Positions 1-7,255 of a DNA stretch of 9,545 bases are shown piece by piece. Each line of letters begins with the position of its first letter. Positions within the stretch are counted from its first letter, which is position 1. The notes beneath the pieces were generated by a model. It was not told the DNA's origin. It saw only the letters and a list, made by a program, of their open reading frames with translations, and searched no databases. Source of the stretch: Mesorhizobium sp. (lineage in GTDB: Bacteria; Pseudomonadota; Alphaproteobacteria; Rhizobiales; Rhizobiaceae); contig JAEKLU010000126.1 in the NCBI GenBank assembly GCA_019509685.1, positions 1 to 9,545 on the forward strand, in the 5' to 3' direction. The position numbers were made by a program, and so were the translations under genes.

Positions 1-241
1 TCATGCGATGGCGCAAGGCGGTGACGAGAATGGCGCGCACCAGCGCACGGTCGCGGCCGTCAAGAACCTTGTACTGCGGATGGCCGTGCTCGTTGTCGGT
101 CAGCCCGTCGAGCGGTGTGCGGGCATCGATGACGGCGGCCAGCAGGCGCGCCGCGGCTTTGCGCGCGGCAAGGCCGGCGACGGTCTCGTCATCGGCCTGG
201 TGCTGCGGATTGCCTTGCTGACCGCGTCTCGGCGGCTTCAC
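1..241 (-). CDS. rsmB: RsmB/NOP-family rRNA cytosine-5 methyltransferase, N-terminal fragment
   Basis: Reading the minus strand from a GTG at 241-239 gives 80 uninterrupted codons to the window edge. The visible part is the N-terminal NusB-like RNA-binding region of RsmB-type 16S rRNA m5C methyltransferases: [14 protein letters not shown] at about residues 21-34, then [23 protein letters not shown] and LRHRM. The SAM-binding catalytic domain lies outside the window. The GTG start overlaps the htpX stop by four bases (GTGA), and an AAGGG at about 252-256 lies roughly 9 bases upstream as a possible ribosome binding site. This implies translational coupling behind htpX. The family call rests on recognition of the N-terminus and on htpX-rsmB neighbourhood, which I recall from other rhizobia. 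An ATG-only gene caller would miss this fragment. Confidence 0.8.
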
Positions 242-1275
242 GACCACGGACCCTTCGACCCGACATTGCGTGGTCCGGTCGGGTTGAGGCCCCATGGATT
301 GGATTTTGGCGGTTCCGGTTCGGCGAGCGGCGTAGCTTCGGCAGGCCCACTTCCCCATGGTCCCGCCGATGGCTCCTCGGGCTGGATCGGCGGAGCAGAG
401 GCCAGGCGCCGGCTAGCCTGCGGCGCGCCGCCCATCTCGCGCGCCATTTCCTGCAGGGCGGCGATGCGGTTCTCCGTGCTCGGATGGGTCGAGAACAGGC
501 TGTCCATACGCTCCCCCGAGAGTGGATTGATGATGAAGAGATGCGCCATCGCCGGGTTGCGCTCGGCATCCGGATTGGGGATCTGTTCGGCGCCGCGCGC
601 GATCTTGTTCAGCGCCGAGGCCAGCCACAGCGGGTGACCGCAAATCTCGGCGCCGCGGCGGTCGGCCTCGTATTCGCGGGTGCGGCTCACCGCCATCTGC
701 ACGACCATGGCAGCAAAGGGCGCCACGATCATCGCCACGAGCACGCCGACAAAGCCGAACGGATTGTTGTTGTCGCGATTGCCGCCGAAGAAGAAGGCGA
801 AATTGCCGAGCATCGAGATGGCTCCGGCAAGCGTCGCGACGATCGTCATGGTCAGCGTGTCGCGATGCTGCACATGGGCAAGCTCGTGCGCCATCACTGC
901 CGCGACCTCTTCATGGCTGAGCCGCTCCAGCAGGCCGGTGGAGGCGGCCACGGCCGCGTTCTCGGGGTTACGTCCAGTGGCGAAGGCGTTGGGCTGCGGG
1001 TTGTCGATCAGATAGGTCCTTGGCATCGGAAGGCCGGCCTGCTTGGCCAGCACCTGCACGATGGCGTAATATTCCGGCGCGTTCTTCTCGTCCACCTCGA
1101 CGGCGCGGTTCATCGACAGCACCATCTTGTCGGCATTCCAGTAGCTGAACAGGTTCATGCCGGCGGCGAATAACAGTGCGATGATCATGCCGCCCGAGCC
1201 GCCGATCATGTAGCCGACGCCCATGAACAGCGCCGTCATCGCGGCTAGAAGCATGGCGGTGCGAAGCGTGTTCAT
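238..1275 (-). CDS. htpX: HtpX, membrane-bound M48 zinc metalloprotease
   Basis: The 345-residue product is a HtpX-type M48B peptidase. These inner-membrane proteases degrade misfolded membrane proteins and work alongside FtsH. Two hydrophobic segments lie at about residues 5-25 and 28-45. The zinc site HELAH is at 130-134, with catalytic Glu131. The third ligand is in SRTREYEAD, probably Glu201. Two more hydrophobic segments lie at about 141-163 and 172-196. [13 protein letters not shown] at 262-274 is the usual C-terminal M48 signature. The last 55-60 residues form a Pro/Gly/Ser-rich tail that E. coli HtpX (293 residues) lacks. It is probably disordered and I cannot assign it a function. 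The ATG at 1275-1273 starts directly at the typical N-terminus ([10 protein letters not shown]), with a weak GGAT upstream. The stop overlaps rsmB. A promoter-like sequence of heat-shock type lies about 55-90 bases upstream. Confidence 0.96.
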
Positions 1276-2671: not shown

Positions 2672-3541
2672 ATGCTGATCCGGCTCGGCTACGAAATCAC
2701 CATCGACTGCGTCGCCGCGACGCCCATCATTTCGCTGCTCGAAATCCATCCGGAACGGCAATCCGACATCAAGCGGCAGACGCGGGTGCTGACGTCCCCT
2801 TCCGTGCCGACTCGAACCTATCGTGACGGCCATGGCAATATGTGCCGGCGCTTCACCGCACCTGCCGGAAGCTTTCGTATTCTCTATGACGCGGCGATCG
2901 AAGACAGTGGCGAGACCGACGAGGTCAACACGCTGGCGGGTGAAACGCCGGTGGCGGATTTGCCGGATGACGTGCTGGTGTACCTGCTCGGCAGCCGCTA
3001 TTGCGAGACGGATCACCTCAGCAACGTCGCCTGGCAGCTTTTCGGCCATGTACCGCCGGGCTGGGCCCGGGTGCAGGCGATCGTCGACTACGTCAACAAC
3101 CGGCTTTCCTTCGGCTACGGTTACGCACGCTCCACCCGGACGGCCGCGCAAGCGCATGAGGAGCGGGTCGGGGTCTGCCGCGACTTCGCGCATCTGGCGA
3201 TCACGCTCTGCCGCTGCATGAACATTCCGGCGCGCTATGTGAACGGCTACCTCGGCGATATCGGCGTGCCGGCCGATCCGGCGCCGATGGATTTCTCGGC
3301 CTGGATGGAAGTCTTCCTCGACGGCAAATGGTACACGTTCGACGCGCGCCACAATCGGCCGAGGATCGGCCGGATCGTCATCGCGCGCGGCCGCGATGCC
3401 ACCGACGTGCCGCTGCTGCACAGCTTCGGGCCGCACACGCTCAGCCTGTTCAAGGTCTGGACCTATGAGCAGGAAGGCAAGCTTTTCAATCCGCCGCATC
3501 ACGGCATCGACCGGACGGCCAGCGCACAGATGCTGGCTTAG
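2672..3541 (+). CDS. Transglutaminase-like (COG1305) protein lacking the canonical active-site His
   Basis: This 289-residue cytosolic-looking protein has no signal peptide or membrane segment. The N-terminal beta-rich domain (about 1-100) is the usual bacterial transglutaminase N-region. The papain-like core runs from about 125 to 230. The nucleophile is Cys169 in RVGVCRDFAHLAI. The third triad residue is Asp224 in WYTFDARHN. Where the family normally has HAW, this protein reads MDFSAWMEVF, so the triad His is replaced by Ser209. Other His residues nearby (His174, His227) might substitute. The activity could be protease- or amidase-like, but the substrate is unknown. The C-terminal block ARGRDATDVPLLHSFGPHTL is typical of rhizobial members as I recall them. 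A strong ribosome binding site, AAGGGGGA (2659-2666), lies 5 bases before the ATG. The TAG stop uses the first base of the adjoining inverted-repeat element. Confidence 0.85.
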   Translation: MLIRLGYEITIDCVAATPIISLLEIHPERQSDIKRQTRVLTSPSVPTRTYRDGHGNMCRRFTAPAGSFRILYDAAIEDSGETDEVNTLAGETPVADLPDDVLVYLLGSRYCETDHLSNVAWQLFGHVPPGWARVQAIVDYVNNRLSFGYGYARSTRTAAQAHEERVGVCRDFAHLAITLCRCMNIPARYVNGYLGDIGVPADPAPMDFSAWMEVFLDGKWYTFDARHNRPRIGRIVIARGRDATDVPLLHSFGPHTLSLFKVWTYEQEGKLFNPPHHGIDRTASAQMLA

Positions 3542-3709
3542 GGTCTGTTGAGATTCAGATGAGGCCGGCCTGCAAATGGCGGCTTCCTGCGCTTCCGGTG
3601 CTCACGTACGAAGAGTACGATCCGCTCCGGCTCTCGGAATCCGTCCAGTTTGGTCGCTTCGCGCCCGTCTTCGACTCCGACTCGGCCTGACCTGATTCCC
3701 AACAGACCC
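3541..3709. mobile_element. 169-bp MITE-like element with 18-bp terminal inverted repeats
   Basis: The left end GGGTCTGTTGAGATTCAG (3541-3558) and the right end CTGATTCCCAACAGACCC (3692-3709) are inverted copies matching at 16 of 18 positions; the outer 10 are perfect. Weaker complementarity extends inward (AGGCCGG on the left, CGGCCTGA on the right). A central hairpin CGTAC-GAAGA-GTACG lies at 3605-3619. The element has no transposase and no credible gene. I recall very similar blocks (CAACAGACCC ends, GCTCACGTAC interior) scattered in Mesorhizobium intergenic DNA, comparable in style to rhizobial mosaic elements (RIMEs). No target-site duplication is evident. It begins on the third base of the upstream stop codon and carries five GANTC sites. 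Confidence 0.72.
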
Positions 3710-5384: not shown

Positions 5385-5421
5385 CTGCGAGAAACCGCTG
5401 AACAGTCGTGTTCAAAAGGAA

Positions 5422-5455
5422 AAGGCCGCCGCTTCTTGACGAAGCCGGCGGCCTT
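5422..5455. terminator. Strong intrinsic terminator, probably bidirectional
   Basis: The stem pairs AAGGCCGCC (5422-5430) with GGCGGCCTT (5447-5455), has one bulged C (5446), then pairs GCTTC (5431-5435) with GAAGC (5441-5445) around a TTGAC loop. In the plus direction it follows the TadG-like stop by 37 bases, with a weak T-containing tail. In the minus direction the stem is followed by a T-rich run (complement of 5412-5423, reading TTTTCCTTTTGA), the better terminator context. It therefore probably ends both the TadG-like transcript and a minus-strand transcript from about 5625. Confidence 0.8.
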
Positions 5456-5524
5456 CCGTGTTTCCGTCCATGACGCGGCTTCAGGCGATAGCCGCTTCGG
5501 GCTACCTGCCGCGCGTTTCGCGCC

Positions 5525-5596
5525 TTAACGGGAAGACTGCTTCCCGAAAGTGCAATCCGCTGAGCTCACGTTATGGAAAACGAAATCACTCGACAT
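5525..5596 (-). CDS. Small 23-residue protein with exceptionally strong Shine-Dalgarno sequence
   Basis: ATG at 5596-5594 opens 23 codons ending in TAA at 5527-5525. The peptide starts MSSDFVFHNV and ends DCTFGKQSSR. It is polar and Ser-rich, with one Cys and two VF/TF hydrophobic pairs, and has no membrane helix. Upstream, GAAAGGAGGTGATCC (5612-5598) is complementary to the 3' tail of 16S rRNA over about 15 bases, with AGGAGG seven bases before the ATG. That is far better than any other start in this window. Third-position GC is 13 of 22 after the ATG, lower than is typical of the neighbouring genes. A candidate promoter lies upstream and a terminator with a T-rich tail downstream, so this looks like a self-contained small gene. 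I recognise no family, and no function is proposed. It is shorter than most gene callers accept. Confidence 0.55.
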   Translation of the reverse strand: MSSDFVFHNVSSADCTFGKQSSR

Positions 5597-5597
5597 C

Positions 5598-5612
5598 GGA
5601 TCACCTCCTTTC
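5598..5612 (-). promoter_or_regulatory. Extended Shine-Dalgarno site of the small reading frame
   Basis: On the minus strand GAAAGGAGGTGATCC complements about the last 15 bases of 16S rRNA (the plus strand reads GGATCACCTCCTTTC, like the 16S 3' end). The ATG follows one base later, so AGGAGG is 7 bases from the start codon, the ideal distance. If instead the plus strand were transcribed, the same bases would mimic the anti-Shine-Dalgarno tail, but no plus-strand promoter or terminator supports that. Confidence 0.6.
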
Positions 5613-5632
5613 AGTTTGTTGAACACGCCCTC

Positions 5633-5662
5633 ATGATGGGGTGCGTCGCGGCAAAAGACAAG
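5633..5662 (-). promoter_or_regulatory. Candidate promoter of the small minus-strand unit
   Basis: On the minus strand CTTGTC (5662-5657) is followed after 15 bases by CCCCATCAT (5641-5633). The layout matches the htpX-upstream sequence, TTGAAA-N15-CCCATCAT, and resembles RpoH promoters (CTTGAA, CCCCATnT). A transcript would start at about 5626, leaving a 30-base leader to the peptide's ATG. The call is by motif and position only. Confidence 0.35.
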
Positions 5663-7098: not shown

Positions 7099-7255
7099 CG
7101 CGCCCCCCTCTGTCCTGCCGGACGTTTCCCCACAAGGGGGGAGATTGGCAGCTTCGTCGCAGGCGCCGTCCTGCAACGCTGGTGATTGGCGAAAGCGGCG
7201 GTGACATCGATCTCCCCCCAGGTGGGGGAGATGGCCGGCAGGCCAGAGGGGCGCG
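7099..7255. repeat. 157-bp palindromic intergenic repeat (rhizobial MITE-like)
   Basis: The ends are inverted copies. On the left CGCGCCCCCCTCTGTCCTGC (7099-7118) then CGGAC; on the right CGGCAGGCCAGAGGGGCGCG (7236-7255), whose complement reads CGCGCCCCTCTGGCCTGCCG. The arms agree apart from a 2-base length difference in the C run and one mismatch. Each half also holds its own hairpin: CCCCACAAGGGG (7128-7139), and ATCTCCCCC (7210-7218) with GGGGGAGAT (7224-7232). There is no reading frame of note. I recall this CCCCCTCTGTCCTGCCGGAC / CTCCCCC pattern as abundant between genes in Mesorhizobium. It lies between the convergent cfa and MOSC genes and may help separate their transcripts, although no U tract is present. 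It accounts for most of the 244-bp gap. Confidence 0.7.

What the first reader, a model, noticed from the sequence alone, without database searches (positions are those of the whole stretch)
5416..5662. Unannotated small gene unit: 23-residue peptide behind a near-maximal Shine-Dalgarno, with its own promoter-like sequence and terminator
On the minus strand, in order: CTTGTC-N15-CCCCATCAT, a ~30-base leader, 15 bases complementary to the 16S 3' tail, an ATG at ideal distance, 23 codons, several hairpins, and a terminator with a T-rich tail on this strand. These parts fit a transcribed, heavily translated small gene or dual-function sRNA. Long Shine-Dalgarno matches are rare by chance. The peptide is below normal gene-calling length.
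Basis: partly seen in the sequence, partly recalled or inferred. Interest (0 to 1): 0.72.

Follow-up and report, generated by a model that had tools for sequence, protein, structure and literature searches.

The report
Ribosome-tagged structured small RNA with mini-ORF
This gap encodes a short RNA, found in many relatives, that carries an almost complete match to the end of ribosomal RNA, a folded body and a very short reading frame that is kept open although its amino-acid sequence drifts freely, which suggests that being translated, not the peptide made, is what matters.

Summary
It is not chance: 96 of 99 genomes of the genus carry one copy each, as do many other alphaproteobacteria. It is related to Rfam RF01867 (CC2171) but scores below that family's cut-off; Mesorhizobium huakuii MH_s33 was listed under it with a 215-nt RNA-seq product. 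It is the same kind as the rreB small mRNA (Hahn 2017, recalled). New here: (1) the RNA fold is supported by compensatory changes, some inside the ORF and peptide-changing; (2) synonymous changes are not enriched in four ORF groups (observed/expected 0.74-1.3) against 2.63 in a neighbouring gene, and 33 loci with the same peptide share one identical 69-nt ORF; (3) yet 128 of 128 non-redundant members have an ORF of 14-36 codons, against 39 expected and 47 and 38 in the other frames. So frame and length look selected, the amino acids do not. Best reading: a stress-promoted RNA gated by ribosome docking and a short act of translation. The mechanism is inferred.

The parts
5657..5662 (-). -35 element CTTGTC
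   Evidence: Sequence. CTTG lies 48-51 nt upstream of the SD in 130 of 149 distinct MSS/MSN-type upstreams.
5633..5640 (-). -10 element CCCATCAT, 16 nt after the -35 box: RpoH-like
   Evidence: RpoH1 CTTGAA-N15-16-CCTATAT and RpoH2 CTTGCC-N15-16-CCTATCT as quoted in PMC4843759; CTTG-N16-19-CC[CA][AC] in 105 of 149 MSS/MSN-type upstreams against 1.8% in letter shuffles.
5618..5626 (-). Leader 5' end GTGTTCAAC; predicted transcription start about 5626
   Evidence: CAAC 3-8 nt upstream of the SD in 139 of 149 MSS/MSN-type, 41 of 80 sphingomonad-type and 14 of 21 other upstreams. The start site is inferred from the promoter.
5598..5612 (-). Extended Shine-Dalgarno GAAAGGAGGTGATCC, 15 nt complementary to the 16S 3' end
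   Evidence: Of 68 genomes found by a model without SD or start codon, 53 have the exact pattern; 14 of the other 15 keep ATG and an SD with one or two mismatches.
5525..5596 (-). 23-codon ORF with stop TAA
   Evidence: Length 14-36 codons in 128 of 128 non-redundant members; no amino-acid selection detected.
5458..5593 (-). Structured domain (P1, P2, P3 three-way junction) covering codons 2-23 and the 3' UTR
   Evidence: Model R1; 81 both-sides-changed cells against 30.9 +/- 5.8 in shuffles, 0 of 500; window 127 bits (the window was in the seed).
5562..5589 (-). P1, 5' strand (codon 3 onward)
   Evidence: Pairs with 5458-5482; averaged pair probabilities, counts, class-wide re-pairing. RNAalifold on the same alignment pairs its first 7 nt elsewhere.
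5458..5482 (-). P1, 3' strand, just before the terminator
5513..5560 (-). P2; its apical hairpin CGGGAAG-CAGT-CTTCCCG is 5546-5529, with the stop codon directly after it
   Evidence: Apical pair col 52-61: GC 10, AU 9, GU 1 of 20; codon 19/22 cross-table over 41 of 43 unique ORFs: AAG-TCC 22, GAG-CTC 10, GAG-TCC 5, four others 1 each.
5483..5510 (-). P3 hairpin in the 3' UTR
   Evidence: 9 of 10 pairs have changes on both sides.
5414..5455 (-). Intrinsic terminator and T-rich tail

Best explanation
A stand-alone small RNA of about 210 nt, of the same kind as Rfam CC2171 and the rreB/rreR small mRNAs. SHOWN by sequence comparison: RpoH-like promoter boxes; a leader ending in a near-complete complement of the 16S 3' tail 1 nt before the start codon; a folded body (P1-P3) whose 5' half is the ORF; a terminator; selection that keeps the fold, the SD, the start codon and a short frame, but no detectable selection on the amino acids. 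INFERRED: the 30S subunit docks very tightly through the 15-bp duplex, initiates, and a ribosome travels 14-36 codons, opening P1 and P2, then as a rule stops before the 3' strand of P1 and the terminator. Translation thus switches the RNA between a folded state (ribosome absent) and an opened state (ribosome present, probably decaying faster). The RNA would report or tune 30S availability under RpoH-type stress; the peptide is a by-product.
For: One copy in 96 of 99 genus genomes, control 0; 128 of 297 in the order, control 1; 64 of 151 in the family; 50 of 337 in the class, control 0. Covariation, also across types: CATGGT/ACCATG, CATTGTC/GACAATG, GTGAG/CTCAC; helix >=6 in 79 of 117 against 29% in swapped controls. 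SD and ATG kept in members found without them. ORF length 14-36 codons in 128 of 128; shuffles 38.8 +/- 5.1, maximum 51; frames +1 and +2 give 47 and 38 of 128. Synonymous observed/expected 22/18.1, 21/28.2, 16/16.4, 12/9.1 in the ORF groups against 1802/685.8 in the CFA gene. 33 loci with the same peptide have one 69-nt ORF; in 31 of them with the CFA gene, 28870 of 90350 CFA fourfold comparisons differ and 0 of 5115 in the ORF. Recalled, not read here: rreB mRNA co-sediments with 30S, is weakly translated, and is stabilised when its start codon becomes a stop.
Against: No expression, binding or translation data for this strain. RNA-level constraint could mask weak selection on amino acids. 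RNAalifold on the same alignment keeps the P2 tip and P3 but not P1; it pairs GUGAUUU with an internal GGAUUGC instead (only 1 of those 7 pairs has a change on both sides). SD opening energy does not differ from shuffled domains, so nothing in the fold shows regulated SD access. The RpoH assignment is consensus matching only, and only 2 of 80 sphingomonad-type upstreams match it. MH_s33 is tabulated on the same strand as both neighbours, whereas here the RNA opposes both; unresolved. One structure-model hit, L269, has lost both SD and ATG. R1 matched only 23 of 72 sources at E <= 1, sources fetched for their SD-type copy, so the fold is shared in plan more than in detail. That the stop precedes the terminator (117 of 117) is mostly built in, since the terminator search began 85 nt after the start.
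Confidence: 0.5

Rival explanations
1. 30S decoy: the RNA acts only by sequestering 16S 3' ends (dampening initiation under stress); translation of the ORF is incidental.
For: 15-bp duplex of -28.0 kcal/mol; SD kept with at most two mismatches in 67 of 68 structure-found members; RpoH-like promoter.
Against: Does not explain why 128 of 128 ORFs are 14-36 codons nor the near-constant 1-nt spacing to a start codon (two listed cases have 0 nt). A decoy would need high copy number, unknown here.
Confidence: 0.2
2. Trans-acting antisense sRNA working through P2/P3 loops or the leader, with the ORF as a minor dual function.
For: Folded, terminated RNA; the P2 apical loop is nearly the same (AGCARYCU) in the 20 seed sequences of A1; CAAC leader.
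Against: That loop sequence is absent from several other types folded or listed here; frame selection is unexplained. Targets were not searched.
Confidence: 0.12
3. One reading: a functional 23-residue peptide.
For: ATG, SD and frame conserved; N-terminal MSSDF and C-terminal KQSSR/EQPLR recur.
Against: Synonymous changes not enriched in four groups while the control gives 2.63-fold; the compensatory change at pair 52-61 goes with Lys19 to Glu and Ser22 to Leu; peptides differ widely between families; no Pfam match.
Confidence: 0.1
4. RNA thermometer: the fold hides the SD until heat opens it.
For: RpoH-like promoter; SD-complementary sites in the domain exceed shuffles (mean z -1.0 over 117).
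Against: Opening energy of the SD equals shuffles (mean z -0.11 over 61) and falls only smoothly with temperature in the three sequences tested.
Confidence: 0.04

Closest known systems
Rfam RF01867, CC2171 (Caulobacter sRNA)
   Same: The Rfam consensus shows cAAcaAucGAAAGGAGGUGAUCCAGUGUCUCAU, i.e. leader, extended SD, GTG, TC, then a helix from codon 3 to just before the terminator. Full-length match to the window, E 2.7e-5. I scanned 20 of the 30 class-level loci stored (chosen by SD pattern): 20 of 20 match (18 at E <= 0.012), 2 above the gathering score.
   Different: The window scores 31.8, below the gathering score of 75, and part of that must come from SD and terminator. Its P2/P3 were not shown to be homologous. 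Rfam types the family as an sRNA gene; I find a selected reading frame.
rreB (Bradyrhizobiaceae) and rreR (Rhodobacter/Roseobacter) small mRNAs, Hahn et al. 2017, RNA Biol 14:1353
   Same: Extended SD, tiny ORF, stand-alone transcript.
   Different: Window: 15-nt SD, ATG, 23 residues, unrelated peptide. The paper is not held: only its title was seen, in a reference list; its content is recalled.
MH_s33, Mesorhizobium huakuii 7653R (PMC5596092, Table 1)
   Same: Same genus as the window's nearest relatives, listed as RF01867, 215-nt RNA-seq product; my predicted transcript here is about 211 nt.
   Different: Tabulated on the same strand as both flanking genes; treated there as a non-coding sRNA; not marked as Northern-tested. 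I did not see its sequence.

Membership tests
Rfam RF01867 (CC2171) | Score at or above the gathering score of 75 bits | tested here: not met
   31.8 bits, E 2.7e-5, model 1-159 of 159; gathering search empty.
Rfam RF01867 (CC2171) | Leader + extended SD + start + helix from codon 3 to the terminator | tested here: met
   But R1 listed none of L171, L214, L216, which pass the RF01867 gathering score, so homology of P2/P3 is not shown.
rre-type extended-SD small mRNA (Hahn 2017, recalled) | At least 16 nt complementary to the 16S 3' end (threshold recalled) | tested here: not met
   15 contiguous nt; in L207, L208 and L213 the SD is followed by A, giving a longer match.
rre-type extended-SD small mRNA (Hahn 2017, recalled) | Tiny ORF at constant spacing, own promoter and terminator | tested here: met
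   promoter and terminator by sequence only.
rre-type extended-SD small mRNA (Hahn 2017, recalled) | Association with 30S subunits; translation-dependent RNA stability | not testable with these tools
   Needs gradients and start-codon mutants.
Extended-SD structured small RNA group as delineated here | SD kept in homologs found without using it | tested here: met
   53 of 68 exact pattern; 14 of the other 15 with ATG and one or two SD mismatches; 1 lost both.
Small protein gene | Excess of synonymous over nonsynonymous change | tested here: not met
   Observed/expected synonymous 1.2, 0.74, 0.98, 1.3 against 2.63 in the control gene.
RpoH regulon | RpoH -35/-10 boxes at 15-16 nt spacing | tested here: met
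   CTTGTC-N16-CCCATCAT, an imperfect match; consensus from PMC4843759 passages. RpoH dependence itself not testable here.
RNA thermometer | SD sequestered beyond chance | tested here: not met

The most novel reading that the evidence does not exclude
A widespread alphaproteobacterial RNA, partly catalogued as an sRNA, in which the act of translating a short ORF of free amino-acid sequence is the selected function: a 30S-availability sensor built from a near full-length SD, a ribosome-openable fold and a length-limited frame.
Probability: 0.4. Interest if true: 0.8.

Novelty: new member of a known kind. Interest (0 to 1): 0.58.

Why it matters
It links alphaproteobacterial RNAs filed as sRNAs (RF01867) with the little-known extended-SD small mRNAs, and shows a rare evolutionary signature: reading frame and length selected, peptide free to drift, RNA fold conserved. 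That makes a concrete question testable: can translation of a meaningless peptide be a regulatory signal, and does the RNA report free 30S subunits under RpoH-type stress?

Tried and rejected
Chance: rejected. Selected peptide: not supported (all-pairs version: 1058 synonymous against 1115 expected). Thermometer or programmed SD sequestration: not supported; an excess of SD-complementary sites exists (mean z -1.0) but SD opening energy equals shuffles, so I do not build on it. Attenuator or leader peptide of a downstream gene: rejected, since the unit ends in a terminator and the next gene, the VWA/TadG-like protein, runs the other way. A first alignment of 51 mixed-type sequences gave no useful structure because trimming was poor and was dropped. 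The seed A1 was then drawn from the 72 sequences that trimmed (5 did not), thinned there to 23; I used 19 of these (L047 re-trimmed by hand; L084, L133, L152 and L203 left out for trimming or large inserts) plus L020. RNAalifold on A1 gave a partly different structure without P1; I used the one from averaged pair probabilities. The R1 search of the order found 4 of 150, all strong, with strict filters and 22 scored candidates per genome; it is not evidence of absence. One search made an alignment A2 that I did not use for any count. The phylum search (44 of 299) bears no taxon names, so I draw nothing from it about other classes. MH_s33 strand conflict left open.

Full report
WHAT IS THERE. 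Reading 5662 to 5414 on the minus strand: CTTGTC, 16 nt, CCCATCAT, about 6 nt, GTGTTCAAC, 5 nt, GAAAGGAGGTGATCC, one base, ATG, 22 further codons, TAA, folded elements and a terminator. The 15 SD bases complement the 16S 3' end of alphaproteobacteria, with a predicted duplex of -28.0 kcal/mol. The predicted transcript is unusually stable (z -3.8).

IT IS REAL AND WIDESPREAD. In the genus of a Mesorhizobium relative (G002), 96 of 99 genomes have one copy each and the reversed-pattern control has none. Of the three without it, one has a copy with a single change in the SD and two gave no R1 hit. In the order 128 of 297 (control 1), in the family 64 of 151, in the class 50 of 337 (control 0). The start codon follows after one base in nearly all listed cases; two have none, and that list is cut. 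In 24 of 119 loci at least one of eight window neighbours is also near: VWA/TadG in 19, Acs in 19, CFA in 10, HtpX in 9.

KNOWN RELATIVES. A permissive Rfam scan gives RF01867 (CC2171) over its whole length, E 2.7e-5, but below the curated score. Twenty of 30 stored class-level loci, picked by the SD pattern, were scanned and 20 match RF01867, two above the score; L171, L214 and L216 pass it too, 3 of 20 other loci scanned. Since the RF01867 consensus contains the SD, part of this agreement is built in. In Mesorhizobium huakuii 7653R a 215-nt RNA-seq product, MH_s33, was listed as RF01867 (PMC5596092: section with Table 1 and passages seen). Two formal criteria fail here, the RF01867 gathering score and the recalled 16-nt threshold of the rre work, so I do not file the window as RF01867 or as rre. 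The known kind I mean is the extended-SD small mRNA.

THE FOLD IS SELECTED. From 20 aligned sequences covering codon 2 to just before the terminator (A1), averaged pair probabilities give a three-way junction. Counting pairs: 82.9% of cells paired; 31 pairs and 81 cells with changes on both sides, against 18.0 +/- 2.6 and 30.9 +/- 5.8 in shuffles, 0 of 500 reaching either; slid partners drop to 38-47% paired. The structure came from the same sequences, which favours it over the slid controls. RNAalifold on A1 agrees on the P2 tip and P3 (12 of its 24 pairs have changes on both sides) but replaces P1 by a short helix inside the ORF; the two may be alternative states. A pair inside the ORF is G-C in 10, A-U in 9 and G-U in 1 of 20; the change goes with Lys19 to Glu and Ser22 to Leu. 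Across types the first helix keeps its place with different letters: 79 of 117 non-redundant loci (of 195 with a terminator found) have at least 6 pairs there against 29% in swapped controls. R1 finds a match at E <= 1 in 23 of 72 sources, so the detail of the domain varies widely.

THE SD AND START ARE SELECTED INDEPENDENTLY. Model R1 contains neither. In 151 family genomes it finds 68; 53 of those also have the exact SD pattern, 15 do not, and 11 others have only the pattern. Of the 15, 14 keep ATG and an SD with one or two mismatches; L269 has lost both.

THE PEPTIDE IS NOT SELECTED, THE FRAME IS. With nearest-neighbour pairs, synonymous changes observed against expected from the same base changes are 22/18.1 (40 unique ORFs), 21/28.2 (53), 16/16.4 (12) and 12/9.1 (8). 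The same test on 17 windows of the CFA gene of 56 loci gives 1802/685.8. In 33 loci with the same peptide the 69 nt are identical, while 32% of fourfold comparisons in the CFA gene of 31 of them differ. Yet among 128 non-redundant members (of 291, chosen only by SD core, start codon and the following TC), every ORF has 14-36 codons, against 38.8 +/- 5.1 in shuffles and 47 and 38 in the other two frames. Relatedness inflates the counts, but the other frames of the same sequences share it. The stop precedes the terminator stem in 117 of 117, but the terminator search began 85 nt after the start, so this says little for ORFs up to 27 codons.

PROMOTER. Of 149 distinct MSS/MSN-type upstreams, 130 have CTTG 48-51 nt before the SD, and 105 have CTTG-N16-19-CC[CA][AC] against 1.8% in letter shuffles. 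This fits the RpoH1/RpoH2 boxes quoted in PMC4843759 (passages) better than the RpoD box CTTGAC-N17-CTATAT quoted in PMC8844928 (passages). Only 2 of 80 sphingomonad-type and 7 of 21 other upstreams have it, so regulation probably differs by lineage.

MECHANISM. Shown: conserved fold, SD, start and frame length; free peptide. Inferred: tight 30S docking, a short ribosome run that opens P1 and P2, release as a rule before P1's 3' strand and the terminator. The simplest reading is an RNA whose state or lifetime depends on whether a ribosome uses it. A thermometer was tested and not supported. The recalled rreB results (30S co-sedimentation, weak translation, stabilisation by loss of the start codon) fit, but were not read here.

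VERDICT. The searches that bear on that point were made; the key paper is not in the library.

Noticed in passing
window 3541-3709: Inverted repeat (27-nt arms, 85% complementary, 115 nt apart) beginning GGGTCTGTTGAGATTCAG at the end of the transglutaminase-like gene; looks like a dispersed rhizobial repeat (recalled, not tested).
   Followed up: partly
window 7128-7227: Inverted repeat (18-nt arms, 89%) between the CFA gene and the MOSC gene, resembling a rhizobial intergenic mosaic element (recalled).
   Followed up: partly
window 238-1275 (-): HtpX-like M48 protease, a family often RpoH-linked (recalled), lies near the RNA in 9 of 119 loci.
   Followed up: no
window 5408-5423 (-): The tail after the terminator stem reads TTTTCCTTTTGAACAC: TTGAACAC is the exact complement of the leader GTGTTCAA, and the SD pairs with the T-rich tail in the minimum-energy fold of the whole transcript. 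Not tested across relatives.
   Followed up: no
L152 1516-1701: A Mesorhizobium copy with an insert of about 50 nt in P3, the rest intact (125.8 bits), suggesting the P3 tip tolerates insertions.
   Followed up: partly
L269: A copy matched by the structure model but with a degraded SD and TTG in place of ATG: decayed gene or false hit.
   Followed up: no
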